From a virus: DNA of 42,729 nucleotides. Within the stretch, counting starts at the first letter, position 1. Every line of letters begins with the position of its first letter. The stretch is from IMG/VR virus record IMGVR_UViG_3300046825_000021, positions 1 through 42,729 of that record; one strand, 5' to 3'. A program made the translations under genes and the position numbers. A model generated the notes under the pieces. It ran no database searches, was not told the DNA's origin, and saw nothing but the letters and a program-made list of their open reading frames with translations. This document shows, one piece after another, positions 1,315-38,783 of the stretch.

Positions 1315-2027
1315 GCAGTCGGGGCCCGAACGGAGCGGAGGCTTGGCTCGACCGCTTGAAATCCCTGAATCCTTGCCCTGAGGCTGTGGCTTTCGCCGAG
1401 CAGCACGATTCCTTGGCGTCCGCGTGGGCTGCCTGTCCCCGCGGCGACTGGATGCTCTGGCTGGCGGGGCGGCTTGCTGAAGCGCCTGAGAGCCCAGAGC
1501 GACGACGGGTTGTTCTGGCTGCTTGCGCTTGCGCACGTCTTGCGCTTGTTCACCTCCGGCCCGGTGTAATAATAGGGCCGCTTACGGCGATTGAAACCGC
1601 GGAAAGGTGGGCGAGAGGCGAGGGGGTGGCCCTCTCCGCGGTTCGCGACGCCGCCGACGCCGCCGACGCCGCCTACGTCGCCGCCGCCGCCTACGCCGCC
1701 GACGCCGCCGACGCCGCCTACGTCGCCGCCGCCGCCTCCGCCGCCGACGCCGCCGACGCCGCCGACGCCGCCTCCGCCGCCGCCTCCGCCGCCGACGCCG
1801 CCTACGCCGCCGCCTCCGCCGCCTCCGCCGCCTCCGCCGCCTACGCCGCCTACGCCGCCTCCGCCGCCGCCCCCGCCCCCGCCGCCGCCGCCGCCGCCGC
1901 CGCCGCCTACGACGCCTACGACGCCGCCTACGTCGACCGAGTGGACACGCTGACGGTCTGCGCCGACCTTGTAAGGCAGCACTATCCTGAACCGCCAGTC
2001 TGGAGGGATGCCGATGCTCAGCCCTGA
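1311..2027 (+). CDS. alanine-repeat protein, Imm-5-like N-terminal region
   Basis: A 238-residue protein. Residues 1-100 are ordinary sequence, with DWMLWLAGRLA, a Cys-Ala segment (VLAACACARLAL) and GPLTAIETAERWARGEG. That order (aromatic helix, CAR helix, P-L-x-A-I-E then W-x-x-G) resembles the putative Imm-5 immunity family seen in bacteria and phages. Residues 110-205 are an almost pure Ala tract broken by D, Y, S and V, predicted to be one long helix or helical bundle. Encoding DNA is a GCC-type triplet repeat. The start ATG overlaps the previous stop, and the end overlaps the exonuclease gene by 14 bases. The immunity role is an inference from weak similarity. Confidence 0.7.
   Translation: MSSRGPNGAEAWLDRLKSLNPCPEAVAFAEQHDSLASAWAACPRGDWMLWLAGRLAEAPESPERRRVVLAACACARLALVHLRPGVIIGPLTAIETAERWARGEGVALSAVRDAADAADAAYVAAAAYAADAADAAYVAAAASAADAADAADAASAAASAADAAYAAASAASAASAAYAAYAASAAAPAPAAAAAAAAAYDAYDAAYVDRVDTLTVCADLVRQHYPEPPVWRDADAQP
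1647..1934 (+). repeat. GCC/GAC/TAC/TCC triplet repeat tract inside the Ala-rich gene
   Basis: About 290 bases are built almost entirely from codons GCC, GAC, TAC, TCC and GTC in frame with the gene, so nearly every third base is C. All other frames stay open and encode poly-Arg or poly-Pro strings, which are shadows. Such tracts slip easily during copying and probably vary in length between phage isolates. Confidence 0.95.
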
Positions 2028-2973: not shown

Positions 2974-4049
2974 TGAGCGAACCGAAGGAACAGCAGCTCG
3001 CGAAACCGGCGGGTGACCGCCTTATCGTCGTCTCGCCTGGCCGACCGCCCTATCCGGTTCGCGCACAATCGGCTTTCGGCATCAGCCCGGGGGACTGGCG
3101 CGCTCTCGTTGATGCGATCTATCCAAGCGCGAAGACGACCGAGGCCATCGAGCTGGCGCTCACCTACTGCCGTGCCCGCAAGCTCGATCCGTTCAAGCGG
3201 CAGTGCCACATCGTGCCCATTTGGGACTCGAAGCAAGGTCGCGAAGTGGAGACCGTGTGGCCGGGGATTGCTGAGCTGCGCACCACCGCCGTGCGCACCG
3301 GCCAGCATGCCGGCTTCGATGAAGCTCTGTTCGGGCCTGACGAGACGCGCACCTTTAAAGGGGAGGTCGGAAAGCGGGAGGTCGAAAAGACCGTGACATT
3401 CCCAGCCTGGTGTCGAATCACTGCTTATCGTCTCGTAGACGGCCAGCGGGTGCCATTCCCCGGCCCGAAGGTGTGGTACCTGGAGACCTACGCCACGATG
3501 GGCAAGAGCGACGTCCCAAATGAGATGTGGGAGACGCGTCCGCGAGGCCAGCTCGAGAAGTGCGCTGAGGCCGCCGCGCTGCGCAGGGCCTTTCCCGAGG
3601 AGGTCGGCTCGGACTACATCCCTGAGGAGGTGGGTCGACGCGGTGGCTCGATCGACATCTCGCCAGCCGGCCCGGAGCCGCTGGGAGCGCGCACGGAGGC
3701 ACTGGCCGAGCGTCTGAAGGCCGAGCTGGCGACCGCCCAGCCCGGCAGCTCCGGCCAAACGGAGCCAATCGCTGCGCCCTCCCAGGCGCAGGACCGCGAC
3801 AGCCTCGTCGAGGTCGCCAGGGAGACCCTGAAGGCACACGGGCTCGCGGGAGAGGCGAGAGAGGGCGCTCTCCAGGCCGCCTTCGGAGAGTCAAGCTGGC
3901 TGAAGGTCTGCAAGCTGCCTGCGGATCAGCTTGCCATCGGGCTGGCCGCACTCACCAAAAACCTAGAGGGTCTGGCCGCCATGCGCGCCGCCCTTCCGCA
4001 GGATCCGGTCCGGGGGAGGGAGCCGGGGGAGGATGACGATGCTCCATGA
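2973..4049 (+). CDS. bet: Bet/RecT-type single-strand annealing protein
   Basis: A 358-residue relative of phage lambda Bet, which anneals complementary single strands during recombination. Residues about 45-225 carry the family pattern: a helix with LALTYCRARKLDPFKRQCHIVP, VWPGIAELRTTAVRTGQHAGFD, a Lys/Glu-rich beta hairpin, TAYRLVDG, and the closing QLEKCAEAAALRRAFPEE. The C-terminal 120 residues are Pro/Gln/Glu-rich and end acidic, as expected for a tail that contacts single-strand binding protein. GGAGGA before the start and a one-base overlap couple it to the YqaJ nuclease, which is the classic pairing. Confidence 0.9.
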   Translation: MSEPKEQQLAKPAGDRLIVVSPGRPPYPVRAQSAFGISPGDWRALVDAIYPSAKTTEAIELALTYCRARKLDPFKRQCHIVPIWDSKQGREVETVWPGIAELRTTAVRTGQHAGFDEALFGPDETRTFKGEVGKREVEKTVTFPAWCRITAYRLVDGQRVPFPGPKVWYLETYATMGKSDVPNEMWETRPRGQLEKCAEAAALRRAFPEEVGSDYIPEEVGRRGGSIDISPAGPEPLGARTEALAERLKAELATAQPGSSGQTEPIAAPSQAQDRDSLVEVARETLKAHGLAGEAREGALQAAFGESSWLKVCKLPADQLAIGLAALTKNLEGLAAMRAALPQDPVRGREPGEDDDAP

Positions 4050-4221
4050 GACCGCCCGTGTCCTGCGCCCGCAGCGTTGCCCCGGCTCGCACACGCCGAT
4101 GCCGGCGGCGAGCCCTGGCGCGCTCTGCCTCTGCGGCGAGACCTTCGGCCAGCAGCCGCCCGTGCGCGTCGACGGCGCCGTGGTGTGGCTGGTGCCTGAG
4201 CACGAAGGAAGGAGGTTTTGA
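4039..4221 (+). CDS. small Cys-containing protein, 60 aa
   Basis: Starts inside the end of the bet gene, with GGAGG six bases before the ATG (an ATG at 4033 is possible but too close to it). The product has Cys at PQRCPGS and at LCLCGE, so it may bind a metal, but no family is recognised. A 26-base block of it (4084-4109) and its last codons (PEHEGRRF) are repeated downstream at 4604-4642. It ends two bases before the next gene. Confidence 0.6.
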   Translation: MLHETARVLRPQRCPGSHTPMPAASPGALCLCGETFGQQPPVRVDGAVVWLVPEHEGRRF

Positions 4222-4222
4222 T

Positions 4223-4567
4223 ATGGACGTGGTCGTGACGGTACCCAAAGGGATTTGGGAGGACTGGATAGAGGAAGGCGACCTACCCGGGGACCCGCCG
4301 ACAGGCGAAGAGTGGGGCTTCTTCACGTCGGGGGGCAGGCCTAAAATACAGCCGGGCGACAGGGTCTACATCGTGGCGCACGGCAAGCTCCGTGGCTTTG
4401 CCCCTCTCACCCGGCTTGAGGTGGATGGCAACCGGCTGGTATTCGGGCGTGAGGGTGGCGCTGAAGCGCTCACCATCGACGAGCCCATCGTCGGTTTTAG
4501 AGGGTGGCGCTACCGCTGGTGGGAGCGCAAGGATGAAAAGCCGTTTCCGGAGTGGAAGAAGCCGTAG
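4223..4567 (+). CDS. PUA/ASCH-like fold protein, 114 aa
   Basis: The central segment, IQPGDRVYIVAHGKLRGFAPLTRLE (residues about 41-65), has the G-D-x-V-Y strand and following strand-turn typical of PUA/ASCH-type barrels. ALTIDEPIVGFRGWRYRWWER and a final PFPEW follow. Proteins of this kind are common in phages and the fold usually binds RNA or modified nucleotides; no substrate can be assigned. A strong GGAGG precedes the ATG. It sits directly upstream of a structured non-coding stretch, with a second ASCH-type gene on the other side. Confidence 0.7.
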   Translation: MDVVVTVPKGIWEDWIEEGDLPGDPPTGEEWGFFTSGGRPKIQPGDRVYIVAHGKLRGFAPLTRLEVDGNRLVFGREGGAEALTIDEPIVGFRGWRYRWWERKDEKPFPEWKKP

Positions 4568-4714
4568 ATGCCGCGGGCCTGGAGTTGGAGGCGACTCCCG
4601 AGAGGCTCGCACACGCCGATGCCGGCGGCCGGAGCACGAAGGGAGGCGCTTCTGATGAGACTCAAGCTGACGCGGGAGACCATCCGTCTTCTCGCCGTTC
4701 AGGCGGACGATTGA
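4568..4714 (+). CDS. short peptide with lanthipeptide-leader-like C-terminus
   Basis: An ORF of 48 codons begins immediately after the previous stop (TAGATG), but the better start is ATG 4655 with GGGAGG eight bases upstream. That gives the 19-residue peptide MRLKLTRETIRLLAVQADD. The L-x-L-x-x-E-T-I-R-x-L pattern resembles leader peptides of class I lanthipeptides and small proteins so annotated. No core peptide or modifying enzyme follows, so the resemblance may be chance. The longer form carries GSHTPMPAA in the same frame as the gene at 4039. Confidence 0.35.
   Translation: MPRAWSWRRLPRGSHTPMPAAGARREALLMRLKLTRETIRLLAVQADD
4604..4642 (+). repeat. internally deleted partial copy of the 4039-4221 gene
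   Basis: Bases 4604-4629 are identical to 4084-4109 (26 bases), and GAGCACGAAGG at 4632-4642 is identical to 4198-4208. In the original the blocks are 88 bases apart; here they are 2 apart. This is a duplication that lost its middle, and it restores a GGGAGG ribosome site in front of the short peptide at 4655. Confidence 0.75.
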
Positions 4715-4874
4715 GGATTGACGAGCGCCAAAGCGTAGGCGTACCATCTTGAGCAACGGTCGCACCTCTCTTTTCTGATGGGCGGACGGTTCCATCCGAA
4801 AGAGAAAGTGCCCGGCGGAGTCTTGAAGGAGGCGACCGCGCGGGCACAGGAGAAAATGATGCCCCACCAGAATA

Positions 4875-5295
4875 GCACGATCGGTCAGAAAGACAAGCCC
4901 TCCGGCTTGTCGGCCCGGTCGTGCTCCTGTTTGGCTCATCTGCTCCCCTCGGCCGGACAAGCCTCCCAACAGCAGCACCGGGTCAAGCACAGCTCTCTAC
5001 CCTGGGGGTAGCCGAGAGGCGCAGTCGCGCCCCCTGAAAGAGCGCCGTAGGCGGGAGGCAGGAGCCCGCTGCCGGGGTCGCCAACGACTCCAGGCCCAAG
5101 CGCCTCGAATCCGGGCAACGGGCGGCGTAGTGGATCGCCGGCAGGAACGGAGACGTCCCGGTCCCTGAGGGGGAGAGAGGTGCGAGGGTCGCAGACCATG
5201 GTGAGGGCTCCCCAAGGGAGTAAAGGCCAGGCGTACTGGCTACCATGGACACGTTGGAGACCGGCGAGGCCGGCCCCCTCCCATCAGGAGGGATT
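4875..5295 (+). ncRNA. candidate large structured RNA between two ASCH/PUA-type genes
   Basis: No convincing gene lies in 4715-5326. Instead there are consecutive hairpins. At 4875-4924 a 10-pair outer stem with one U-G wobble surrounds an 8-pair stem (4892-4899 with 4904-4911, loop CTCC). At 4993-5018 CTCTC-TACCC pairs with GGGTA-GAGAG, and 5019-5030 and 5051-5069 form further stems. At 5196-5248 a 7-pair stem (CCATGGT/ACCATGG) closes a three-way junction with stems 5208-5220 and 5226-5240. Stems 5261-5273 and 5276-5292 follow. The wobble works only on the + strand. I could not match it to tRNA, RNase P, tmRNA, or group I or II introns. It ends about 20 bases before the ribosome site of the next gene, so a long regulatory leader is the alternative. 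Confidence 0.5.
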
Positions 5296-5326
5296 CCGGG
5301 AGGTAGTGTCTAAGGAGTGAATAATC

Positions 5327-6001
5327 ATGCACGACAAAAGGGATGAGTCTGAACGCGATCGGGAAGGCGGGGAAGGCGCGTCGAGCGAGCACAGGCCACC
5401 TCCCCGCCACGAGCTGAAGACGTGGCCGGACGAGTTTCAGGCGGTGCTCGACGGCAAGAAGCGGCACGAAGTGCGCCGCGCAGATCGCGCGTATCAGACT
5501 GGCGACACCGTGCTGCTCCGGGAGTGGGAACCCCGATACCGAGACGCCCCAAATTGCTACACCGGCCGCGAGACGATCTTCACCATCGGGCACGTGACCG
5601 CCGGCCCATCCTGGGGGCTACCGGAGGAACTCTGCGTTTTCACTCTAATCGAGCAGAGGGAGTGTGCCCAGGAGCTGCATCTCCCAAGCGCGTCGGCGTC
5701 GATGTGGCGGATCGAGAGCGCGTCGGCGTCGATGTGGCGGATCGAGGGCAGGAATGGCGCGGCCGGTCTGGATGTGGCGGTCGAGCCGGACGGCCGGACG
5801 TTCCTTAGGCCAGTGGACGCGGGTATCGCCGGTTTTGTGCTCACCCCTGAGGCGGTTGCGGAACTCGCGATTCTGCTCGCGGTGGCACTTCCAGGAGATG
5901 ACCCAGACGACGGAGCCGCCGCCCGGCAGACGCGCGAGGAGCGCGCCGACAAAGCGGCCGAGGGCCGGGAGCCTGGGCGCGTCGAGGGGGTGGACCGGTG
6001 A
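5327..6001 (+). CDS. DUF3850 (ASCH superfamily) protein with C-terminal extension
   Basis: Residues about 28-110 fit DUF3850: HELKTWPDEFQAVLDGKKRHEVR, then TGDTVLLREWEP, YTGRETIFTIGHV and GLPEELCVFTL. The fold is ASCH-like and generally RNA- or nucleotide-binding; the cellular role of the family is not established. The last 110 residues are a separate region that begins with a perfect two-copy repeat of ten residues (SASASMWRIE). AAGGAG nine bases before the ATG fixes the start. The gene follows the structured non-coding stretch directly and overlaps the next small gene by GTGA. Confidence 0.8.
   Translation: MHDKRDESERDREGGEGASSEHRPPPRHELKTWPDEFQAVLDGKKRHEVRRADRAYQTGDTVLLREWEPRYRDAPNCYTGRETIFTIGHVTAGPSWGLPEELCVFTLIEQRECAQELHLPSASASMWRIESASASMWRIEGRNGAAGLDVAVEPDGRTFLRPVDAGIAGFVLTPEAVAELAILLAVALPGDDPDDGAAARQTREERADKAAEGREPGRVEGVDR
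5687..5746 (+). repeat. 30-base perfect tandem duplication
   Basis: Two identical 30-base units (5687-5716 and 5717-5746) encode SASASMWRIE twice in frame, just after the ASCH domain. Perfect identity suggests a recent slip or unequal exchange. Confidence 0.95.
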
Positions 6002-6105
6002 CACCTGCCGCCTGGCTGTGCCTCTCTGGTGGCGCTTTCGGCGGGTTTGCCCTGGGGTTCCTTCTCTTCGCTGTGCTGAGCGACGGCGGAGGTAGACGGC
6101 GATGA
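5998..6105 (+). CDS. small single-pass membrane protein, 35 aa
   Basis: GTG start inside the stop of the DUF3850 gene, and an ATGA overlap with the next gene at the other end. The peptide is nearly all one hydrophobic helix (from WLCLSGGAFGGF to LLFAVL) followed by a basic tail ending in GGGRRR, giving an N-out, C-in prediction. Function unknown. The exact couplings at both ends argue that it is translated. Confidence 0.5.
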   Translation: MTPAAWLCLSGGAFGGFALGFLLFAVLSDGGGRRR

Positions 6106-6260
6106 GACGCCGACCGAAGGAAGCGAGCCGCCCCGACACCCGGCCCAGGCTCTGCCCTGGGTGCTGCGCTGCTCTGATCCGCGGCAGGAGGGCTCTGCCG
6201 GGCCGGTTGTGCCCTGACTGCCTCAGAGAGCGCGTGATAGCGCTGGCGGTGCGACCATGA
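6102..6260 (+). CDS. small zinc-ribbon-type protein, 52 aa
   Basis: Two Cys pairs (LCPGCCAAL and LCPDCLRER) separated by about 14 basic residues form a C-x2-C/C-x2-C zinc-ribbon-like unit flanked by Arg-rich ends. A nucleic-acid-binding role is plausible but not shown. It overlaps the membrane peptide upstream (ATGA) and the cytosine methyltransferase downstream (ATGA), so it is made together with that enzyme. Confidence 0.55.
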   Translation: MRRRPKEASRPDTRPRLCPGCCAALIRGRRALPGRLCPDCLRERVIALAVRP

Positions 6261-7387
6261 GGCCCCGGGCGCTGGACCTGTTCTGCGGCGGTGGGGGGGT
6301 CACCGAAGGCCTCCGCCGGGCCGGCTTCGAGGTCGTGGGCGTGGACGCCGATCCGAAGTGCGAGCGCTCCTTCGTCGGGCACTCCCGGCTCGGCAAGGCG
6401 GGCGAGCCGCCGGTACTGCGCCACGGGGGACCGGGTCGGACCTGTCCCGGTTGCGCAATGCATCCGCCGGCGGACATCGTCAACCCAGCCGTCTTCGTGC
6501 AAGCCGACGCCCTGGAATTCCTTGACCGGGTGATCGCTGGCCAGCACGGGCACTTTGACTTCATCTGGGCGAGCCCGCCTTGTCAGGCGCACAGCGTCCT
6601 CCGGAAGATCAACCCAGGCCGCGAGTATCCGGACCTCATCCCCGCCACCCGCGAACTCCTCCAGCGCTGGGGCGGGCTGTGGGTGATCGAGAACGTCCCC
6701 GGCGCCCCGCTCGGCGGCGGCGCCTCCTACCTGACGATGCTCTGCGGGACGATGTTCGGTCTCGGCATCGACACTCCCGAGGGCGGCGCCGAGATCCAGC
6801 GGCACCGCCTTTTCGAGACAAGCTTCTGCACAGGCCTCCGGCCCGCCTGCCAGCACGGCCACATCGGCATAGAGAGCCTGACCGTCACCGGCACCGGCAT
6901 GGGGCCGGGTAACCGCGGGAAGGACGCCCACATGGCCGCAAAGAGAGCAGTCGTGACGGTGGTGGGGAAGAAGGGTTTGCCGGGAACGAGCCACTCGCGC
7001 CGCGCTCTCAGCGTGACCGGACATGCGACCGAGGTGTCCGCCGCGAATTGGGGCCGGCGGCGGGAGGTGATCACCGTCTCCGGCGACCGCTGCAACAGCG
7101 CCAACACGCCGCGGGTGATCTGCGTGGCCGGCGGCAAGGCGATGGCGGGAGGGATGATGACGCCACAAGGCGAGTTGAAGCGGCGGGTTCTGACGGTCGC
7201 GGGTGACCACCCAGCGTCCGGCGGCCGCCATCCAGGGAGGCAGACCTTCTCCACCGACGACGCCCGGGCCGCGATGGGAATCGACTGGATGCCGATGGCG
7301 TACCTCAGCCAGGCGATCCCGCCTGAATACGCCCGCTGGATAGGGCTTCAGGCCCTCGCTTTTCTCTCGGATCGGCGGCGGGCATGA
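6257..7387 (+). CDS. DNA (cytosine-5) methyltransferase
   Basis: A 376-residue C5 methyltransferase that transfers a methyl group from S-adenosylmethionine to cytosine in DNA. Motif I is ALDLFCGGGGVTEGLRRAGF (5-24), motif IV is SPPCQ with catalytic Cys 109, motif VI is VIENVPG (143-149), and QRHRLFE is the QxRxR motif. The C-terminal QAIPPEYARWIG closes the cofactor pocket. Between QRHR and the end, the target-recognition region repeats a short strand pattern (LTVTG, VTVVG, LSVTG, ITVSG, ICVAG, LTVAG) six times. No restriction partner is nearby, so it is probably an orphan enzyme protecting phage DNA. It overlaps the next gene by ATGA. Confidence 0.92.
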   Translation: MRPRALDLFCGGGGVTEGLRRAGFEVVGVDADPKCERSFVGHSRLGKAGEPPVLRHGGPGRTCPGCAMHPPADIVNPAVFVQADALEFLDRVIAGQHGHFDFIWASPPCQAHSVLRKINPGREYPDLIPATRELLQRWGGLWVIENVPGAPLGGGASYLTMLCGTMFGLGIDTPEGGAEIQRHRLFETSFCTGLRPACQHGHIGIESLTVTGTGMGPGNRGKDAHMAAKRAVVTVVGKKGLPGTSHSRRALSVTGHATEVSAANWGRRREVITVSGDRCNSANTPRVICVAGGKAMAGGMMTPQGELKRRVLTVAGDHPASGGRHPGRQTFSTDDARAAMGIDWMPMAYLSQAIPPEYARWIGLQALAFLSDRRRA

Positions 7388-10054: not shown

Positions 10055-13000
10055 CCTTCTGCCGCAACCCGGGGATGCCCAGCATCTCCTCTTCGCCGAG
10101 CTGCTCCAAGATTCCGCCCCGGGCCTTCCGCCGGCGGGACTCGATGTGCTTCCAGCCGGCCTCCTGGAGGATCTTTTCCGAGAGGTCATGCTCGCCGCGC
10201 TGGTCGAGCACGCGGGCGAGGCGCTGGACGTCGGGCGGAATGGACATGCCGCGCACCCACTCACCCACAGGGCGCGTCCAGTCCTGGCGCGCATCGCGGA
10301 CCGCCCGGGCGGTCGTCTCGTAGAAGGGGACCTGCTCCATGTTGCCCCAGAAGGCATTCGAGAGGCCCTGCGCGATGTCCTTCTCCCGGAAAACCGCGTT
10401 GCCGGACTGGATGATTTCGAACGCTCCCTGATGCAGCACCATGTGAGGGATGCGCACATCTCCTACTTCGATTTCTCCCGGTTGGAGATCGGTCGCCCGT
10501 CTGTGTTGGCCCGGCACAAAGTAACCGCCGGCTTTGATCAGGCCGGCCGCAGCGAGAGCGAACAGTGGCGCCCCGATGAGCCCCTTCTTGAGCTGGCGCA
10601 TGATGAGCTCGGCCTCACCCGGCGCGGAGAGCTTTAGGCCGGCGCGCACCACATCCCCAAGATTCGAAGCGGCTTCATCGGCCAGCGCCTTCCTCCCCCT
10701 CGAGATGACGCGCCCCATCTTGGTCGCGCTCTTCGGAAGGCCGAAAGCGTAGTGCGTCACGTCGGTGACGAAGTTGGTAGGCACTTTGACGATTGGAAGC
10801 TGAGTCCTGACCGCCGTCTTGCTCATCTTTTCCAGCAGCGACTCGTTCGGCATCGGGCCGAGCGAACGGTTGAACCGCTCCACGAGGCGGTGGTCGCCCA
10901 TGTAGATCTCATCGTAGGCGTAGGCGCGGGCCTTGCCGTCCATGACGCGCTGGGTCAAGGGGTTCAGGAGCTGCTCTCCCTCGCCCGTCTTGAGGAGATG
11001 CCCCGCTTGCTTCTCCATAGCGAAGTAGTAGGCCGAGATTTTCGCGGGCGCTTTGATGGCCCCGTGACCCCGTCCCGGGTAGTCCATCCACTCCGGCACC
11101 CCGGGGTTGAAGTGATCCTTGCCGGCGGCCAGATCGAAGGCGCCCTCCCCGTGGCGCAGAACGCCTTTGGCCTCCTCCCACGACTCGCGAGAGAAGAACT
11201 TCGCGTAGCTCTTGGCCACCGCTGACAGGGAGCCCCCGCCCTCGATCGGCGCCTCGGCTGCGAAGTGCGTGACCACGGGGAGCTTGGAGACCCCGGCGCT
11301 GGCAAGTTCTTCGATAGGGCGCAGGATCAAGGCGCGGGTGGACGCCGCAGCCAGTATCTTTTGCGGCGTGGCGAAAAGGCCGGACAGTTTTAGGAAGCGG
11401 CCCCAGCCCGCTGTCCAGTCCATCGCCTTCTCGAAGCCCGTCCGATTTGCGGCTTCTCGGACGGCAATGATCCGGTCTGCCTGGCGCCGCAAGCGGGCAA
11501 CCTCGGCGCGGGCGGCGTGCAGTGCCTCGTCCGCCGGGAGCGGCGCGCGGGCGGCGCGCGGACGGATCTCCCCAGAGGCGAGCTGTTGCTCCAGGTCGGA
11601 GACGGCGGCGCCGGCGCGCTTCTTAGCGGCGCCGAGCCGTTCCGGATCGGACAGCGGACCGCGGCCCGGCCCGAGCTTCGCCGCCTCGGCCTCCCATCGC
11701 TGCGCCTCCGCTTCGAGCTTCCCGCGCAGGTCCGGGGCGAGGCGAGGGTCCTGGAGCCGCCCGCGGACGTCCTCCAGGGCGTTGAGGACGCGCGCTTTTT
11801 GGCGGAGCCTAGGGAGGTCCCCCTCGACGGCCTGGCGCGCCGCCTGCTCGGCCCTAGGCCCGCTGCCGGCGATGACATCGCGCACGTCACGGGGCTCCAG
11901 CTCAGCAAGGTAAGGCTTCGCCTCCGTGTACAGGCCATCCACCAGATCCTGGAGGTTCGTTACGCCGGCCTGGATCCTGTTTTTCGCCTTCTTGGCGAGG
12001 ATGCCGGCGAGCTCGGGGTCCAGGCCGGCCCGCGGCGTACTGGCGCGAGCGGCGAAAACCTTGGTGAGGGCGTCGTTTTCAGCATCGAGGACGGCGCGCG
12101 TAGTGCCCCGGGAGCTCCCGCGGGCCGCCCGCGCCCCCTGCCGCGCCTGGTACGCCACCACCCGCTGGGCTTCCAGCTTCATGGCGCGCTCCTCGGCGGC
12201 GGCGGCGCGGGCCTGGGCCTCCTCCAGCTTGGCCGAGATCTCGGCGAGCTTCTGGCGGACCGGTGCCGGCGCCTCCGCCCCGTTGGCGACCGTGTACCGG
12301 CGGTCGAGCGTGAGCGCCGAGTAATCCTCAGCGATGAGCTTCTGCCGGGCACGGCCGGCACGGCCCCACACGGTGCCGGCGCGGTCCAGGGCCTGGTCGG
12401 AGGCGTCACGCGCGGCGGCGATCGACTGGCGGCGGACGGCGGCGAGCGCCGCGGCCTCCGAGTCCCCCGCCTTCAGCGCGTCGGCCTCAGCGCTGAGAGC
12501 TTCCCGATAGTCGAGCGTCAAATGCATGCGGTCGTGAAGCAGGAGATCGTTCTCGACGTCTGAGAGTTGGCGCGGCTTCTCGGCCACCTGCTGAGCCAGT
12601 GCCCGCGCGTGTCCGGGGTCCTGCTCGTAAAGCGCCTTCGCCTCCTCCCAGGTGGCGCTCTCGCTGCGGGCAAGGCGCTCGACTTCCGGGAGGCCGGCGG
12701 CGGCCCGCTCGGCGCGGGTCACAGAGTGCTTGGTGCCGGTGGTGGTGGCTGTCTGTACCCCCGTTGTAGGGACAGTGCTCACGGCGGCCGGCGGGTCGAC
12801 GGTATTCAAGCCCCGCGCGTTCGCCATAGAGGGAGCCGCAGGCGGCTCGATCCCCAGCATCCGCATGGTCTCGTCCACCTGAGCGAACGGGTGGGAGGCC
12901 TGCTCTGCGGCGGCTTCCTCACCAATCGCGAGAGACCGCTGCGCCAGATCTCCGGCAGGCCCCGGGGCTGCGCGCAGCCCAAGCCGCTGGAGCTGCTCGG

Positions 13001-21776: not shown

Positions 21777-22685
21777 TCAGACGTCCACGGTCCAGGTGCC
21801 GACGATGGAAAGCGCCACCCACTCGGTGGCGTTGATGGCGGTCAAGATGAGCGCAGAGCCAACAACGACGCTGCGCACGAAGCCCGCCGCGGCGGAGACG
21901 GAACCCGCCAGCCGGATGGTGTCTCCGGCCGCGGCTACAACGCGTAGCCCGTCCGTGTCCTGCACAGCGAAGCCGAACTCCATCCCGGCGACGGCAGACG
22001 GCAGCGTGTTGTACGCCTCGGCGGTCGCGCCTTCGTTTGTGAGGAGCTTGCGGCTTTCGGTGGCGAGAAGAAGGTTCGGCGAGCCGACTCCGGCCGTGCT
22101 CGCCTCCACGACTCGGCCCGTGAGATGCTTGCCGAACCCAGACCCGCCATCGGTGTCCAGAAGAGTCCCGGCGGAATCCCTTTTTATGCCCGTGTCTTTG
22201 GCCTGGTCGGCATCCGAGCCCGGCGCCCAGGCGATCGGACTCGCCGAACTGAGGCCGACACCGGACCCTTCGCTCTTGATGACGACGGCGTTGCTGGCGT
22301 AGTTGCTCCCCGTCTGGTTGAAATAGATGGTCTTCAGCCACACCGTTGCACGCCCGGACAGGTCACCCTGCACCAGCTCAATCTGATCCGTCGTTGGTCG
22401 CCGCTTTAGACCGAGGTCTCCCACCGCCGAGCCAAAAAGACCGATGCCGCCCGAACCGTTTGGCGTCAGGATGAGCGATCCGTTGCTGTTCACAGTTGCC
22501 AGCGTGTTCGCGTCGAGGCGCAGGTTGTCGACATCGAGGCGGGTGAGAACGACGGTCGCGAGATAGTCCGCCACCTGGGCCGGAGTCAGAGCCTTGCTTG
22601 CGCCGCTCTGGGTGCAAGGAATCAACTCCGCCCCGCCGAGGGCGCTGGCCGTGGGAGCCGTGCTGGGCTTAAGGTCGGTTGGCAT
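21777..22685 (-). CDS. tail-fibre / appendage-like protein, 302 aa
   Basis: The N-terminus (LGGAELIPCTQSGASKALTPAQVADYLA) is a common opening of phage tail-fibre subunits. Repetitive short strands with N-x-S-G and G-S-G-G turns follow, then a C-terminal domain (LLTNEGATAEAYNTLP ... GDTIRLAGSVSAAAGF) shared by many phage fibre tips. A receptor-binding role is inferred. Four bases separate it from the 52-residue gene upstream. Confidence 0.65.
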   Translation of the reverse strand: MPTDLKPSTAPTASALGGAELIPCTQSGASKALTPAQVADYLATVVLTRLDVDNLRLDANTLATVNSNGSLILTPNGSGGIGLFGSAVGDLGLKRRPTTDQIELVQGDLSGRATVWLKTIYFNQTGSNYASNAVVIKSEGSGVGLSSASPIAWAPGSDADQAKDTGIKRDSAGTLLDTDGGSGFGKHLTGRVVEASTAGVGSPNLLLATESRKLLTNEGATAEAYNTLPSAVAGMEFGFAVQDTDGLRVVAAAGDTIRLAGSVSAAAGFVRSVVVGSALILTAINATEWVALSIVGTWTVDV

Positions 22686-23816: not shown

Positions 23817-24554
23817 TCAGACGGGCGCGCCGGGGAAGAGGACGGAGAGCCGGTTGGAGCCCTGCCGGCCGCTGACGGCACGCGTGAAGGCGTTGGGGGT
23901 GACGGCTATGGCGTTGAGACCCTCCCGCTTCGTGCCCGCCTCTCGCGCCCGGGCAAGGGCCTGGGAAGCGAAGGACTGATGTGCCTGGCCGAGGTCGGCG
24001 CGCTGGTCGGGAGAGGTCAGGTAGTAGTCGGCCCAGGTGAGATGCTTCAGCACCGACACCTGCGGCAGGAGAAACCAGGCGTTGGTTTGCGTGGTCGATG
24101 CGACCGTGAGAAGAGCGCCGGAGGCGGTGTCCTTTGTGCAGTCGAGGACCGCGTCCCACTTGATGGTGTAGGCGCCGGCCGGCGGCGGCGCGAGCTGGAG
24201 CTTCTCTTCGTACCAGGCGGCCAAGTACGGGAAGGCCGAGGAGGCCCCCTCCTGCACGGCCCGGATGGTCTCCATGTCGGTCACCTCGAGCGGCCGGCGG
24301 TAGGCGCCCATGTCGTAGCCGAGACGCTCGAACCGCAGGAGGCTCTTCGGGAACCCGGTGTCCGCCGCCGAGTAGGCGGCCTGGTTCGCGACCGTTGCAA
24401 AGGAACCGGAGACCTCCATCCACGGGACGATCTCCGGCTTGAGGTTGGCGAGCTGGCGCACCAGCGCCGCCTTCATGAGCGTGGTGGTGTTCGGGTGGGA
24501 GTTGAGCACTCCCACCACGAGATCCGCCGCCACGCTCTGGAAGTCGTCCGCCAT
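23817..24554 (-). CDS. head-to-tail adaptor-like protein, 245 aa
   Basis: The order (a helix LVVGVLNSHPNTTTLMKAALVRQL, FATVANQAAYSAADTGFPKSLLRFERLGYDM, LEVTDMETIRAV, then PYLAAWYEEKLQLAPPPAGAYTIKWDAVL) matches tail-accessory adaptors of the P22 gp4 / SU10 type, which dock under the portal. C-terminal helices (QALARAREAGTKREG) fit as well. The start at 24554 gives MADDFQSVAADL; the ribosome site is weak. It follows the capsid genes, as expected. Confidence 0.6.
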   Translation of the reverse strand: MADDFQSVAADLVVGVLNSHPNTTTLMKAALVRQLANLKPEIVPWMEVSGSFATVANQAAYSAADTGFPKSLLRFERLGYDMGAYRRPLEVTDMETIRAVQEGASSAFPYLAAWYEEKLQLAPPPAGAYTIKWDAVLDCTKDTASGALLTVASTTQTNAWFLLPQVSVLKHLTWADYYLTSPDQRADLGQAHQSFASQALARAREAGTKREGLNAIAVTPNAFTRAVSGRQGSNRLSVLFPGAPV

Positions 24555-31318: not shown

Positions 31319-31515
31319 CTCGGGACCTCCTCAAAGAGGCGCGTTCGGTCGACCCGGATAAGGGTGTCGTCGCCACCGAGTGCGTACACCTCAACGCGCA
31401 GGCCTTGCACGCTGAACACGCGCACGACGATGCGCGGTCGGTCCGGGAACTCCTCCAGCTCCAGCCAAAGAAGCTGCCCCTCGGTCACGCGTTCGGGGTG
31501 GCGGTACTCCCTCAT
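31315..31515 (-). CDS. small beta-rich protein, 66 aa
   Basis: Alternating strands (QLLWLELEEFPDRPRIVVRVFSVQGLRVEVYAL) ending in DRTRLFEEVPR. ATGA overlaps on both sides. Family not recognised. The tight coupling to the portal gene implies co-expression. Confidence 0.55.
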   Translation of the reverse strand: MREYRHPERVTEGQLLWLELEEFPDRPRIVVRVFSVQGLRVEVYALGGDDTLIRVDRTRLFEEVPR

Positions 31516-33905
31516 TCCATGCCTCCGATCGGAAGGGGCGGAAGCTGGCTCTGCTCCGGCAGCACCGGAGTCTGCTCCATCTGCCGGCCGGCCAAGATCG
31601 CCTCCGGGGCGACCTGGATACCCGCCTGCGCCAGGAGCTGCGCGCCCGCGACCGGGTCGAGATCCTTGAAGTTGATGGTGCGGGAGGGCGGCTTCAAGCC
31701 CCCCGCCGCCGCCCCGCCGCTGCCGTCCTGCACACCAGGCTGCTGCGTCTTGCCGGCCGGCCCCATGACTACCTCAGAGGCCTGCTTGAGCAGCTCGGTG
31801 GCCTTCTCGAAGTCGGCCGCCGCCATCTGCTGGATGAAGCCCATCCACCCCTGCTCTTGCTGGAGCTTCTCCTGCTCGGCCTGCTTCTGCTCCTCCGACT
31901 TCCAGACCTTCTCCAGGTCGCGCACCAGGTCCGCAAGAGCGGTGCCCTCGGCCGGGCTGGTCATCAGGAAGGCACGGATCACAAACCGGCGCGCTTCCGG
32001 CGGGACCGCGTTGAGGATCTGCTCCAGTACCCCGTGCTGCGTCCACAGCATGGACATCGCCATGCGCTGCGTGGCCGCCGAGGGACGGAGAACGAAGGCG
32101 AGCTCGTGGTCCATGATCTCGCCGACATTCTCCTGGAGCCAGGCGCCGACCGTATAGGGACGCGTGGCCGGCATCATCGCGCCAGTCTGCGGGTCGACCT
32201 GCGGCGGCTGGGAGGGATCGGGAATCATGATCTGCTCGATCTCGCCCGTCTCCGAATTGACCTGCCCGGTGATCCCCTCCCTCGGCGGCGCCCCCGTCGC
32301 CCCCAGGATCTTGTCGATGTCCTGGGGGTCGAGCAGCTCGAGCACCAACCGCGCCATGGTGACGGCGCCCTCCCGCATGTAGGAGGTGAAGGCGCTGGTC
32401 AGGCTCATCTGCATTTGGGTGCTGGCTTCCAACATGGTGGAGACCAGTTTCACCGATCGATCGGCATCGAAGGTGCCGCGGTTCAGGTCGGAGATGCCGA
32501 GGACGTAGCGGGGCAGCTCGATCGCCAAAAATTGGAAGGTGTCCCTCATCGAGGAGGTGCGCGACCCCTGCAAATCCTGCCGCTCGCGGATCTTGTCAAG
32601 CGCGCCGGGAGGGATCTCGGCCACGGAGCCGGGGATGGCCCGGCTCTCCACGTACTGCTCGAACTCGGCGCGGCTGGGGAAGGCGCCGCCCTCGACGTCG
32701 GCGCCGCCGCGGTTTCGGCGGGCCTCCTGCTCCAACTCCAGGCGGATGGCCACCGAGACCAGGCGCTGGAGCCCGTATAGGACCCGGCCCCATCCAAACC
32801 ATCGCCGTTTGAGCGCCTCGCCCTCAAGTACCCATTCCCCCTTGCCGGTCGCGCAGCGGATCAGGCGCTGGTTACCGGTGATGGGCTCGGGGTCGGTCAG
32901 CACCAGCGCGCCGCCGGTGATCCCGCGCACCAGCACCTGGCACCGGTACCAGGTGGCCTGGCCGAAGACGTGAGCCTCCGGCTTCATGAACGGTCGGTCG
33001 GCGCCCGCCGCCTCCTGCTCCATCCTCTCCATGGCTTCGTCGAAGTCTTGAGCAGAGGCCTCGCGCTGGCGGCCGGTCTTCGGATCGTCCCAGCAGCACC
33101 GGCTCTCGAAGACAACGTACTGGAAATTGTCGACCGCGACCTCGCGCAACCGCTTGGTGTCCGCGCTACCCGAGGAGTGAATGTCGTCCGATGTGGCCCC
33201 GGAGACAGACACGCTCACCGCGGTGCCGGCCACCATCTGCACGCCGTCTTTCGAGGGGTTCCCGCTTCCACCGCCGCTCTTCAGGGCGCTGATCGCGTCC
33301 TCGTGCTCAGGGAAGCGCAGACAGGCTTCGTCGACGCCGAAGTAGGAGCGGACGGCGAACTCCTGGCCGTCCGCCATGTTCACCTCGCGGTGGCCGGCAT
33401 CCCAAAATACTCGATCGAGAGCGATGTGCTTCTCCCGGGGGCGGAAGGGGGGCCGCTCGGTCTCCAGGTTTACCTCAACGAAGGCGTAGCCCACGAGGAT
33501 CAGATCCATCAGGGCGGCGCCGTCTGCGGCCTCGGAGTCCGCCATCGCCCTGACGGCCCGGACGAGCAGGGTCACCATCTCGGCCACGACTTCTTGCACC
33601 ACGCCCTGGTCAAAACCGCTGAAGCTGGGGTCCTTCCGGGCCGCGACGCACGCGCCCCAGAAGGTGTCGACCAGGCTCATGATGATGGCGATTTCGGGCG
33701 GGTCCGAGCCCCAGAGCTTCTCCAGGTGGGCAAAATCCTGGCCCTGGATGCTGTTCCCGCCGTAGGCTTGGTAGTACTTCGCCGCCTCTTTGAGGACCCG
33801 CTTGTGCTCTGGCTCGGCGGCGGAGATAAAGGCCTTGTAGCGCTTCCGGGCCTCCTCTCGGGTCGGAGCTGACCCGCGCTTCGGGGTATCGGTCTCGGGG
33901 GTCAA
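31512..33905 (-). CDS. portal protein, P22-like type, 797 aa
   Basis: Forms the ring through which DNA enters and leaves the capsid. Length, the N-terminal helical region (KRYKAFISAAEPEHKRVLKEAAKYYQAYGG), FWGACVAARKDPSF, VFWDAGHREVNMADGQEF, VSVAIRLELEQEARR and the C-terminal Gln/Glu-rich helical barrel (EEQKQAEQEKLQQEQGWM) fit long portals of P22-like podoviruses. A start codon of TTG (33905), overlapping the upstream stop, is the only option near the reading-frame start. It follows TerL, as expected. Confidence 0.82.
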   Translation of the reverse strand: MTPETDTPKRGSAPTREEARKRYKAFISAAEPEHKRVLKEAAKYYQAYGGNSIQGQDFAHLEKLWGSDPPEIAIIMSLVDTFWGACVAARKDPSFSGFDQGVVQEVVAEMVTLLVRAVRAMADSEAADGAALMDLILVGYAFVEVNLETERPPFRPREKHIALDRVFWDAGHREVNMADGQEFAVRSYFGVDEACLRFPEHEDAISALKSGGGSGNPSKDGVQMVAGTAVSVSVSGATSDDIHSSGSADTKRLREVAVDNFQYVVFESRCCWDDPKTGRQREASAQDFDEAMERMEQEAAGADRPFMKPEAHVFGQATWYRCQVLVRGITGGALVLTDPEPITGNQRLIRCATGKGEWVLEGEALKRRWFGWGRVLYGLQRLVSVAIRLELEQEARRNRGGADVEGGAFPSRAEFEQYVESRAIPGSVAEIPPGALDKIRERQDLQGSRTSSMRDTFQFLAIELPRYVLGISDLNRGTFDADRSVKLVSTMLEASTQMQMSLTSAFTSYMREGAVTMARLVLELLDPQDIDKILGATGAPPREGITGQVNSETGEIEQIMIPDPSQPPQVDPQTGAMMPATRPYTVGAWLQENVGEIMDHELAFVLRPSAATQRMAMSMLWTQHGVLEQILNAVPPEARRFVIRAFLMTSPAEGTALADLVRDLEKVWKSEEQKQAEQEKLQQEQGWMGFIQQMAAADFEKATELLKQASEVVMGPAGKTQQPGVQDGSGGAAAGGLKPPSRTINFKDLDPVAGAQLLAQAGIQVAPEAILAGRQMEQTPVLPEQSQLPPLPIGGME

Positions 33906-34087
33906 CTGCGGCGCCTCCGCGGTGGATCGTTGAGCCGACCGCCGGTCAGCTTATACGACAGAATGGTCGCTTTCCTTCGCTGTTGGCGCGAGGTCGCCAG
34001 GGCAAGGCGGAGGCGTCGGAGGCGCTCCTCTTTGGCCTGCTCGCGCTCCGGGTTCGGTTCGTCGCCGCCGTGTAAAAATCTGCTCAT
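33902..34087 (-). CDS. small basic protein, 61 aa
   Basis: The start at 34087 has GGAGG seven bases upstream (a farther in-frame start has none). Highly charged: PEREQAKEERLRRLRLALATSRQQRRKATIL, then PPRRRRS. Probably helical and nucleic-acid- or protein-binding. It ends inside the portal start. Unknown family. Confidence 0.5.
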   Translation of the reverse strand: MSRFLHGGDEPNPEREQAKEERLRRLRLALATSRQQRRKATILSYKLTGGRLNDPPRRRRS

Positions 34088-34124
34088 TGTCGCCTCCGCA
34101 GGAAACGCGTCCGCCAGGTTTCCA

Positions 34125-34577
34125 TCAGCCCAGCTCCTCACGGAGGCGCCGCACCTCTTCCTCTTTCGCAGCGCGCTTCTCTTCCTGGGTGCGAAGCTTT
34201 CCCAGCTCATCTTCGGCAGCCTTCAGCTTCGCGAGCCGCTCCTGGCGCCAAGTTGCCTTGATCGCCTCGGCGACGAGCTTCAGGTTCTCGCTGAGCCACT
34301 GCGGCGGCGGAACCTGTTGCGCTTCGTACTCCGCGGCCAGCGTGCGCCCGTAGGCCGCCAACTCCATGAGGCTCTCCAGGTTGCCTGTCGCCCCCGAGAA
34401 GGAGAAGTTGCGAAGAGCGACGAGTCTCGCAGACCAAGGCTGCCGAAGTGAGGCCGCCAGATAGGACCGCAGTTGCGCCTCTGCCGCCTCTGCCTGCACC
34501 GAGCTGGTGGAGTAGACCTGGCCGACACCCAGGAGCTGGCGTTCCTGCTCCATCCACTGCTTGTTGCTGATCGTCAT
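34125..34577 (-). CDS. helical late protein, 150 aa
   Basis: GGGAGG precedes the ATG. The second half is a long charged helix (RLAKLKAAEDELGKLRTQEEKRAAKEEEVRRLREELG). The first half is helical with Ser and Gln patches. Such proteins between TerL and portal are often head-assembly partners, but no family is recognised. An extended -10 box upstream (34658-34666) may give it an extra promoter. Confidence 0.6.
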   Translation of the reverse strand: MTISNKQWMEQERQLLGVGQVYSTSSVQAEAAEAQLRSYLAASLRQPWSARLVALRNFSFSGATGNLESLMELAAYGRTLAAEYEAQQVPPPQWLSENLKLVAEAIKATWRQERLAKLKAAEDELGKLRTQEEKRAAKEEEVRRLREELG

Positions 34578-34614
34578 GAGGGTCCTCCCAGGTTCGAAGG
34601 TGGGGTGTAGTCCA

Positions 34615-36495
34615 TCACATGCTCGCCCATGTCCTGCCGTTCTCCATGATGCCTGGCATTATAGCACCGCCGGGGACGCCGAAGGGATTGGCAACCGTCG
34701 CCCGCGGACACACCCGGCCGCCAAACTCGTACACGGACCCAGGCTGTGGCCGCCTCATCATCGAAACAAACTGCGGCACTCCGCACTGTGCTTCGGTGTC
34801 GAGCAGGTCGTCAAAGGCAAGATCCTGCCCGATCTGCATCCGCTCGTACTCGTCTTCCCGAAACTGCTGGAGCGTGTCCCGGTGGAGATCCGGGCCGGCC
34901 AGGCCGTTGAAGCTGCCGTGCCCGAAACCGCGCGCCGGGTAGGCGACCCGTCCGGCTTGATAGATCGGCTCCAGGTTCTGGATTTTGGTCCGCTTCACCC
35001 AGCCCTCCCGCTTCACGGAAGAATTCGGGCGATCGCCGCGCGGCTGGGGCCAGGGGCGGACGGTGGGGCGCTTCCCGCCGAAGGTGATTCGGCGCTGCCG
35101 AACGTGGTCCCTGAACGCCTCCGACCAGCCGGCGTTGCCCTGGTCATCAAACCAGACGGTGAGCTGCGGATCGTACCGCATCCACTTTTCCACCAGGCCC
35201 AGCCCGTTGGGGCAGTAGGGCTTCCAGCCTTCCACCACAGCCGACTCGATCCATTCCGAGGTGGAATCCGCCCGATCGCGGCCGAGGAGGATCTGCATCG
35301 CCTTCGAGGCGCCGATGCGCTCGCGGATTAGTTCCAGGTTGGCCCAGGCGTCATCCGCCGTCCAGGCGACTACCCGGATCACGGTGAAGTCGGACCGCTT
35401 CTTGCCGCCCGCGCCGTCCACGATGATGTGGATGTACGGGGACGCCGCCGCGATTTCCTCCGGCCGCTCGTCGTACAGCCGAATCCACTCCCAAGAGAAG
35501 AGCGTTCCCGAGCGCTCCCGAAACTCCAGCTCGAACTCGGCGTAGTAGATCGAGTCATCGTGAATGTCCCGCCGCTGGCGGGCGTAGTACGCGGCGGTGT
35601 GGAGGTTCGGCTCGCCGGCCGGCGTGAAGTTTCCCCCCTTCGTCGCGGCCTGCTTGTAGACCTTCGCGAAGAGCCCCTCCCGCTCACGGCTGATTAGCGG
35701 ATCCGCCTTGTCTTTCGGCGTGTTGAAAACAATGACGGGGCAGTCTGGCGGCGCCAGCGCGGCGAGGTCGGACAGGTTCTTGCCGATCTTCGCGATCATT
35801 GGGACGTTGCCGCGCAAAGCGGCTGTCAGGACGTCGTCGAGCAAGATGATGTCCGGGTGCTTGGACTCCGCGGGCGTCAGAATCGATTGCACGACTAGGC
35901 TTTGCTCGCGAGCCCCGGCCGGCCGCTCCACGACGTAGCCCCGCTTCGTCCCCTCTTTCAAGTTCCGGAACTGCGGATAGTGGTCCTTCAGCCGGTCGGT
36001 CTGGATCTGGGCCAGGGCGCCGGCGCCCATGCCGGTACCGATCTGGTCCACCTTGTGGGTCCAGAGGCCGATGGTCTTCGACAAGCCCAGGTTCGGGTGG
36101 TAGGAGCCCTGCGTGTCGTCGATGCTGTGCACCCACAAGCACAGCGCGAGGGCGAGGGTGGTCTTCAGGCCGAGCCGGTGGACCTGGAACCAGACCCAGC
36201 CATCCTCAGGCTCGACGAGGGCCTGCTGGTACAGGCGCGCCACCTGGAAGGTGTACGGGTGATCGATCCAGAGCTTGCCGCGAAGCGGGTGCCCTTTCTC
36301 GTCGACTTTGTAGCTTTGAAAGCTAGTGAACCGGCGACAAAACCACCAGAAGTCATCATCTGCGATCGCACGGTCAAGGAGCATCCCCTCCTCGACGAGG
36401 CGGTCTTTCTTGTCTTCGAGGAGCCGGTTGATCTTCGCCGCGGCCTTCAGGTACCGGATGTGCCCGGGGCGGTCAGGGAGGCGCCTGAAGTCCAT
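34615..36495 (-). CDS. terL: terminase large subunit (TerL)
   Basis: A 626-residue packaging motor. The ATPase domain has an altered Walker A (VHRLGLKTTLA, about 105-115, lacking the usual G-x-G-K-S) and Walker B DIILLDDV (215-222). The nuclease domain has YIHIIVDGAGGKKRSDFTVI with the first metal-binding Asp (360), and further acidic residues near DLAFDDLLDTEAQ. FNTPKDKADPL matches the coupling motif. It pumps DNA and cuts concatemers. The start codon has no strong ribosome site. Family assignment is from motifs and length. Confidence 0.85.
   Translation of the reverse strand: MDFRRLPDRPGHIRYLKAAAKINRLLEDKKDRLVEEGMLLDRAIADDDFWWFCRRFTSFQSYKVDEKGHPLRGKLWIDHPYTFQVARLYQQALVEPEDGWVWFQVHRLGLKTTLALALCLWVHSIDDTQGSYHPNLGLSKTIGLWTHKVDQIGTGMGAGALAQIQTDRLKDHYPQFRNLKEGTKRGYVVERPAGAREQSLVVQSILTPAESKHPDIILLDDVLTAALRGNVPMIAKIGKNLSDLAALAPPDCPVIVFNTPKDKADPLISREREGLFAKVYKQAATKGGNFTPAGEPNLHTAAYYARQRRDIHDDSIYYAEFELEFRERSGTLFSWEWIRLYDERPEEIAAASPYIHIIVDGAGGKKRSDFTVIRVVAWTADDAWANLELIRERIGASKAMQILLGRDRADSTSEWIESAVVEGWKPYCPNGLGLVEKWMRYDPQLTVWFDDQGNAGWSEAFRDHVRQRRITFGGKRPTVRPWPQPRGDRPNSSVKREGWVKRTKIQNLEPIYQAGRVAYPARGFGHGSFNGLAGPDLHRDTLQQFREDEYERMQIGQDLAFDDLLDTEAQCGVPQFVSMMRRPQPGSVYEFGGRVCPRATVANPFGVPGGAIMPGIMENGRTWASM
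34658..34666 (-). promoter_or_regulatory. extended -10 promoter inside the end of terL
   Basis: Minus strand TGCTATAAT, a perfect extended -10 (TG-N-TATAAT), with no good -35. Transcription would begin about 75 bases before the next gene (34577). A near-perfect inverted repeat, ATGATGCC-T-GGCATTAT, covers it and the start site. Confidence 0.4.
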
Positions 36496-38171: not shown

Positions 38172-38783
38172 TCAAATGGTTGCAGGAGAGGGAGTCGAAC
38201 CCTCCCGGCGCGGGGCATGAGCCCGGCCTGCCCCCGGGGCTTCCTGCGTCAGGCCCACCGAAAGGCGGTGCGTGAGATGCCAGGCGCCGTACGCCTTCGG
38301 GTGGCACTCGCTGAGGAGCCATGGTACGAGCTGGTCGCGCCACTCCTCGAACCCGATCCAACCGCCGACGCACATCGCGTTCACATCGAATATCTCGACG
38401 CCGCCTAAAGCGTGACGCGCGCCGGTCCAGTGCGTGTGCCGGTACCGCGCCGCCATCGGCACACCCGGCGCTGTCCATGGCCCCTCCCACTGCACCCGGC
38501 AGAGTCCGTGGTCAGGTAAGTAGGCGGGCGGGTCCGCAGCGAGGACGGCGGCCTGCGGCTCGATGGGACAGGCGAGACGCTGCCACCGCGCGCCGGTGGA
38601 CCGCAGGGCCTGGAACATGAGCGTCGGGTTCATGTACCCCTTGCGCTCGAAATCGCCGAGGTGGGGCCGAACCTCCGCGAGCGTGAGTCCGAGCACGGCG
38701 GCGAGGGCCGCGGGGCCGCAGTTGGCGCCCCATTCGTCGCTCGCCTTCACGACGTCCTCCAAGGTGAAGAGCACGGGAATCAC
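38172..38783 (-). CDS. phage papain-like peptidase-type protein, 203 aa (tail reads through a tRNA)
   Basis: GTG start with AGGAGGTGATC upstream. WGANCGPAALAAVLGLTLAEVRP (active-site Cys), HTHWTGARHALGGVEIFDVNAM (His, then Asp/Asn) and the repeated W-E-G-P-W-T fit a phage group with the papain-like C-G-P ... H ... D order. The domain ends near LTHRLSVGL. The last residues (TQEAPGAGRAHAPRREGSTPSPATI) are the translation of the tRNA-like sequence, the usual mark of a frame read across a tRNA. Real protein boundaries may be shorter. Confidence 0.65.
   Translation of the reverse strand: MIPVLFTLEDVVKASDEWGANCGPAALAAVLGLTLAEVRPHLGDFERKGYMNPTLMFQALRSTGARWQRLACPIEPQAAVLAADPPAYLPDHGLCRVQWEGPWTAPGVPMAARYRHTHWTGARHALGGVEIFDVNAMCVGGWIGFEEWRDQLVPWLLSECHPKAYGAWHLTHRLSVGLTQEAPGAGRAHAPRREGSTPSPATI
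38177..38248 (-). tRNA. tRNA-fMet(CAT)-like gene with unusual D arm
   Basis: The cloverleaf is 72 bases on the minus strand, with encoded CCA. The acceptor arm is CGCAGGA paired with TCCTGCA, including the C1-A72 mismatch that marks initiator tRNA. The anticodon stem has GGG/CCC pairs and the loop CTCATGC, with anticodon CAT. The T arm is GAGGG-TTCGACT-CCCTC. The D region is only 15 bases (GCCC-CGG-GGGC), lacks the usual T8 and the wide loop with two Gs, and is the weak part. It overlaps the 3' end of the peptidase-like gene. It may be functional, degenerate, or a captured host tRNA end. Confidence 0.6.

What the first reader, a model, noticed from the sequence alone, without database searches (positions are those of the whole stretch)
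4875..5295. Large structured non-coding RNA candidate flanked by two ASCH/PUA-fold genes
Seven or more perfect hairpins and a closed three-way junction (5196-5248) fill a gene-free 420-base stretch, with a U-G wobble that fits only the + strand. The genes on both sides encode folds that usually bind RNA. A phage RNA with partner proteins would be new; a long structured leader for the DUF3850 gene is the alternative.
Basis: partly seen in the sequence, partly recalled or inferred. Interest (0 to 1): 0.78.

Follow-up and report, generated by a model that had tools for sequence, protein, structure and literature searches.

The report
Structured phage leader RNA after promoter
A gene-free stretch in an uncultured phage probably makes a folded, untranslated RNA that starts at its own promoter with two back-to-back hairpins; a distant relative has a similar arrangement in the same place, but there is no proof yet that it is a discrete RNA or that it works with the neighbouring RNA-binding-like proteins.

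Summary
Window 4568-5326 is the only internal gene-free gap of at least 350 nt called in the 42.7-kb phage, and 4875-5295 holds 10 perfect small hairpins where shuffles give 3.5 (0 of 200 reach 10). The strand argument fails: both strands fold equally well. It is a promoter-like site (4718-4747, the only one in 3900-6300) followed at once by two tandem hairpins (4767-4847), with a 12-bp long-range pairing back to 5174-5185. One distantly related phage (IMGVR_3300035241_000028, found through RecT) has its largest gap in the same RecT-to-methyltransferase interval, also with a TTGACG promoter and two abutting hairpins. A covariance model of that relative's hairpins ranks the window's pair first in the whole window, but the E-value is weak (0.093) and the reciprocal search fails. 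The relative lacks both ASCH-type neighbours, which speaks against an RNA with partner proteins and against a DUF3850-specific leader. I find no terminator and no Rfam match. Best reading: a structured, untranslated leader of an early operon, possibly acting on RNA polymerase like HK022 put RNA (inferred). Homology rests on two genomes only.

The parts
4223..4567 (+). ASCH-like small protein gene upstream (114 aa)
   Evidence: no Pfam/NCBIfam match; AlphaFold model pLDDT 73, best PDB matches ZmASCH 5y6b/5guq, E 0.02-0.07, prob 0.95-0.99; five relatives at 58-62% identity
4718..4747 (+). promoter-like site TTGACG-18-TACCAT; transcription start inferred near 4754
   Evidence: only sigma-70-like site in 3900-6300, 0.2 expected; the relative has TTGACG-17-TAGAGT at L007:11686-11714
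4767..4805 (+). hairpin 1 (UCUCUUUU/GAAAGAGA with inner GAUGG/CCAUC)
   Evidence: fold of 4764-4853 z -3.8, 0 of 200 shuffles; counterpart L007:11724-11796
4808..4847 (+). hairpin 2 (GUGCCCGGCGG/CCGCGCGGGCAC with apical GUCUU/GAGGC)
   Evidence: pair probability 1.00; counterpart L007:11797-11838
4849..4946 (+). third domain: GGAG/CUCC and AUGAUGCC/GGCUCAU enclosing the 13-bp stem 4874-4925 with apical GACAAGCC/GGCUUGUC
   Evidence: pair probabilities 0.90-1.00; 4841-4960 z -3.6, 2 of 285 background windows lower
4760..4771 (+). 5' strand of a 12-bp perfect long-range pairing with 5174-5185; competes with hairpin 1
   Evidence: arms of 12 bp in 1.7% of shuffles, with span over 300 in 0.3%
5174..5185 (+). 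3' strand of the long-range pairing (AGAGAGGUGCGA); overlaps the segment that instead pairs with 4987-4998
   Evidence: alternative pairing in the minimum-energy fold
4987..5183 (+). central multibranched domain closed by GCAC/GUGC and CUCUCUACCCUGGGGG/CCCUGAGGGGGAGAG
   Evidence: pair probabilities 0.94-0.96, but local energy not unusual
   Evidence: pairs present, closing stem probability 0.56; not clearly conserved in the relative
5276..5292 (+). terminal hairpin CCCTCC-CATCA-GGAGGG, no T run after it
   Evidence: not listed as a terminator by the scan
5327..6001 (+). DUF3850 (ASCH-like) gene, first gene downstream
   Evidence: PF12961 E 9.9e-21; AAGGAG shortly before ATG 5327

Best explanation
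The stretch 4754-5326 is most likely a long, structured, untranslated leader RNA. It would be transcribed from the promoter-like site at 4718-4747 and continue into the DUF3850, small CxxC-protein and cytosine-methyltransferase genes. Its promoter-proximal module of two nearly abutting hairpins most likely acts in cis on the elongating RNA polymerase, as HK022 put RNA does, to help expression of the operon, with the rest of the leader folding into further domains. Shown: gene-free gap, excess of hairpins, tandem hairpins at a promoter-like site, a comparable arrangement in one relative, no terminator found. Inferred: that it is transcribed, that the two arrangements are homologous, and any effect on polymerase.
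For: Only promoter-like site in the region, 20 nt before hairpin 1. Tandem hairpins z -3.8 in the window and -4.3 in the relative. The relative's promoter-like site sits 10 nt before its hairpins. In both phages the largest called gap lies between RecT and the methyltransferase gene. A single-sequence covariance model of the relative's hairpins ranks window 4765-4849 first in the window (17.6 bits; E 0.0055 in 2.5 kb, 0.093 in the whole window). Structure-keeping permutations of the window hairpins give p 0.0005-0.11 over eight settings, six of them at or below 0.013. No + strand terminator-like site lies between the hairpins and the next gene in either phage. Different first downstream genes in the two phages fit an operon-level rather than gene-specific role. 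put RNA: about 70 nt, two stem-loops, putL just after promoter PL (PMC9378689).
Against: Only two examples. Plain alignment is weak (120 of 500 shuffles as good; hairpins 1+2, 9 of 500 in global mode and 75 of 500 in local mode). The reciprocal model (from the window hairpins) does not single out the relative's hairpins, and the syntenic place ranks only 12th of 2602 stretches of the relative. Hairpin 1 differs by a 30-nt insertion. The rest of the two leaders cannot be aligned, and the relative's gap has fewer small perfect hairpins than chance (2 versus 5.4). Both DNA strands fold equally well. No put sequence was compared, and interaction with polymerase is untested. The promoter is a consensus match only.
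Confidence: 0.36

Rival explanations
1. A long structured leader that controls translation or stability of the first gene only (DUF3850), for example by mutually exclusive pairing of 4760-4771 or 4987-4998 with the segment around 5174-5185.
For: The same 3' segment is complementary to two 5' segments; ribosome-binding site directly after the leader; no terminator.
Against: In the relative the gap and tandem hairpins precede an unrelated 79-aa gene and no DUF3850 is found; a comparable long-range pairing is not seen there.
Confidence: 0.2
2. A discrete trans-acting non-coding RNA of a new large phage class (in the manner of ROOL or GOLLD), processed or terminated near 5300.
For: About 570 nt, many helices, own promoter-like site, long-range 12-bp pairing.
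Against: No terminator, no tRNA island, no Rfam match, only one possible relative, most of the body not alignable, central part of the fold not unusual.
Confidence: 0.17
3. A DNA-level element such as a replication origin or recombination site next to the RecT/YqaJ genes, whose inverted repeats act as DNA.
For: Both strands fold equally; near recombination genes; cumulative GC skew minimum at 3218.
Against: No direct-repeat iterons; the skew change may simply follow gene direction; the promoter-like site and hairpins lie in order on one strand.
Confidence: 0.12
4. Decayed coding DNA or chance: GC-rich DNA left after gene loss, with hairpins by composition; the likeness to the relative is coincidence.
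For: Frame + 4740-4919 keeps a weak coding-like codon signal and the 19-codon stub at 4655-4714 is in the same frame; equally strong hairpins occur inside genes; weak pairwise statistics.
Against: Hairpin number exceeds all shuffles; promoter-like site plus tandem hairpins at the same place in two phages; no ribosome-binding site before ATG 4778, and 1-nt indels between the shared hairpin blocks break any common frame (sequences).
Confidence: 0.15

Closest known systems
HK022 put RNA (PMC9378689)
   Same: Two adjacent stem-loops close downstream of a phage promoter, on the strand of the operon
   Different: Window module is about 80 nt and the relative's about 115 nt against about 70 nt; sequences were not compared; no evidence of binding to RNA polymerase; about 470 nt of further leader follow
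ROOL and GOLLD RNAs (PMC12286853)
   Same: Large structured phage RNA of similar length (ROOL example 659 nt) without known protein partner
   Different: No Rfam match at any useful score; no tRNA island; no terminator; conservation of the whole fold not seen
Structured 5' leaders / riboswitch-like attenuators (general knowledge)
   Same: Promoter-like site, long untranslated structured leader, ribosome-binding site at its end, competing pairings
   Different: No known ligand class; downstream gene not conserved between the two phages

Membership tests
HK022 put-type antitermination RNA | two adjacent stem-loops close to a phage early promoter | tested here: met
   layout only, promoter by consensus match; feature as described in PMC9378689
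HK022 put-type antitermination RNA | sequence likeness to putL/putR | not tested
   put sequences were not fetched or compared
HK022 put-type antitermination RNA | binds RNA polymerase beta' zinc-binding domain and suppresses pausing/termination | not testable with these tools
   needs transcription assays
ROOL (Rfam) | match to the family covariance model | tested here: not met
   cmscan of window at gathering score: 0 matches; permissive search of 4500-5400: only chance matches
GOLLD (Rfam) | match to the family covariance model | tested here: not met
ROOL/GOLLD-like ornate phage RNAs | location near tRNA islands (frequent, not obligatory) | tested here: not met
   no tRNA gene in the window
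Conserved structured RNA class | compensatory changes across several relatives | tested here: inconclusive
   7 of 25 pairs change on both sides with 95.8% of cells paired, but only two sequences and an alignment fitted to the structure
   no relative of either protein in the 17-kb locus of the related phage

The most novel reading that the evidence does not exclude
A new class of large phage leader RNA that begins with a protein-free, put-like tandem-hairpin module modifying RNA polymerase and continues as a several-hundred-nucleotide structured domain, present in GC-rich environmental phages of unknown host.
Probability: 0.2. Interest if true: 0.72.

Novelty: new variant of a known kind. Interest (0 to 1): 0.42.

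Why it matters
Antitermination by a nascent phage RNA without a dedicated protein factor is known here from HK022 put (PMC9378689). A second, unrelated phage group using a promoter-proximal tandem hairpin would suggest that phages have reached this solution more than once, and it is testable with one reporter. If instead it is only a structured leader, it remains a candidate regulatory RNA not matched by Rfam.

Tried and rejected
Rfam at gathering and permissive thresholds: only chance matches. DNA similarity in phages and plasmids: no relative. Protein-guided scans with DUF3850, the ASCH-like protein, RecT, terminase and methyltransferase: one useful relative, L007; two bacterial RecT relatives (L055, L056) showed no such element in the stretches read and no model match in their genomes. 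Motif scan from hairpins 1-2: only the relative plus coding chance matches. A second shared motif GTGAGGG(2-6)CCCAAGGGNGT (window about 5201-5221, L007 12061-12082) occurs in only 5 stretches of IMG/VR, the other 4 looking like unrelated AT-richer phage DNA; it sits at different structural places in the two RNAs, so I give it little weight. Models R1, R2 and R3 over related records, and R2 over 297 genomes of the order of L055: no further member, though the empty genome search has no positive control. RecT profile in 385 and 398 further genomes: nothing new. First z-score scan timed out and was replaced. The covariation count is not taken as proof, because aligning two unrelated hairpins would also give double changes. 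Counting arms of at least 8 bp shows no excess; counting hairpins of at least 5 bp does. Protein-coding explanation: no ORF with both start signal and coding signal.

Full report
What was checked. The window is a whole 42,729-base virus record, GC 67%. The reported stretch lies between an ASCH-like gene (4223-4567) and a DUF3850 gene (5327-6001), downstream of YqaJ and RecT genes and upstream of a cytosine methyltransferase gene.

Observation. The stretch is gene-free: a codon-usage gene call leaves 4568-5326 as the only internal gap of at least 350 nt, and the minus-strand ORFs within it score as non-coding. A weak coding-like signal in one forward frame at 4740-4919 remains, without a ribosome-binding site before ATG 4778. 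Hairpins exceed chance: 10 perfect ones against 3.5 in shuffles, 0 of 200 reaching 10 and 0 of 101 tiled blocks. A sliding window finds 9 at 38521-38581 too, and longer perfect arms (8 bp or more) are not in excess, so the excess is real but not unique. Fold energy is unusual for 4751-4990 and 5141-5320 and ordinary in between. The whole transcript-sized stretch 4753-5326 gives z -3.65 and its reverse complement z -3.81, so the fold does not tell RNA from DNA or one strand from the other.

Where the signal really starts. The only promoter-like site between 3900 and 6300 is at 4718-4747 (0.2 expected). Twenty bases later come two almost abutting hairpins, 4767-4805 and 4808-4847, z -3.8 together. 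A 12-bp perfect complement joins 4760-4771 with 5174-5185; arms of that length appear in 1.7% of shuffles, and in 0.3% with such a span. Most of that 3' strand pairs instead with 4987-4998 in the minimum-energy fold, so a switch is conceivable.

A relative. Scans with RecT gave one clear phage relative (L007, contig IMGVR_UViG_3300035241_000028, RecT 59-65% identical). It shares YqaJ, RecT and the methyltransferase in the same order. Its largest called gap, 11529-12315, lies between RecT and the methyltransferase; from the inferred transcription start to the likely next gene start it is about 640 nt. It contains TTGACG-17-TAGAGT followed by two directly abutting hairpins, z -4.3. A covariance model built from these hairpins alone puts window 4765-4849 first in the whole window, with 17.6 bits (E 0.0055 in a 2.5-kb search, 0.093 in 42.7 kb; the runner-up has 16.0 bits). 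Permutations that keep the window's pairs but mix their order and the loops reach the observed alignment score with p from 0.0005 to 0.11 depending on scoring. Against this, the reciprocal model does not find the relative's pair as a unit, free alignment is not significant, and the bodies of the two leaders do not align. I put the chance that the promoter-plus-hairpins module is shared by descent at about 65-70% (judgement). The relative has neither ASCH-type neighbour.

Mechanism. With no terminator found between the hairpins and the next gene in either phage, a promoter-like site on the strand of the operon, and different first genes downstream, an operon-level leader is the simplest reading. 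Among known kinds, two adjacent stem-loops right after a phage promoter is the layout of HK022 put RNA, which binds the beta' zinc-binding domain and suppresses pausing and termination without dedicated protein factors (PMC9378689). I propose that action as the most likely function of the 5' module; this step is inference. A gene-specific leader, a discrete large RNA, a DNA element and decayed DNA remain open with lower weights.

Membership. Rfam has no match, so it is not ROOL, GOLLD or another catalogued family as modelled there. put membership was tested only for layout. Partner-protein status of the ASCH-like genes is not supported, although the upstream protein does look like an ASCH fold (closest PDB structures are Zymomonas ASCH, itself reported as a single-strand-specific ribonuclease, PMC5615036).

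Limits. Two genomes, weak pairwise statistics, unknown host, no expression data.

Noticed in passing
window 24475-24540: Very strong imperfect hairpin (z about -6) inside a structural-region ORF, stronger than anything in the reported stretch; another at about 22072-22140.
   Followed up: partly
window 4084-4110 and 4603-4629: 26-nt exact direct repeat (BLAST self-match) before the ASCH-like gene and again after it; the second copy is followed by a 19-codon stub (4655-4714, MRLKLTRETIRLLAVQADD) that resembles the start of RiPP precursor leaders. Looks like a partial duplication.
   Followed up: no
window 5687-5746: Exact 30-bp tandem duplication inside the DUF3850 gene (SASMWRIE repeated).
   Followed up: no
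window 1646-1932: Long tandem array of 9/45-bp units encoding an alanine/aspartate/tyrosine-rich stretch in the ORF 1305-2027.
   Followed up: no
L018 7631-7984: Gene-free stretch bounded by a 24-pair inverted repeat with inner long stems, next to a methyltransferase in another phage contig; not related to the window element by model search.
   Followed up: no
window 31512-36495: Portal and terminase genes have no tblastn relative in the phages collection, so the phage is far from deposited ones.
   Followed up: partly
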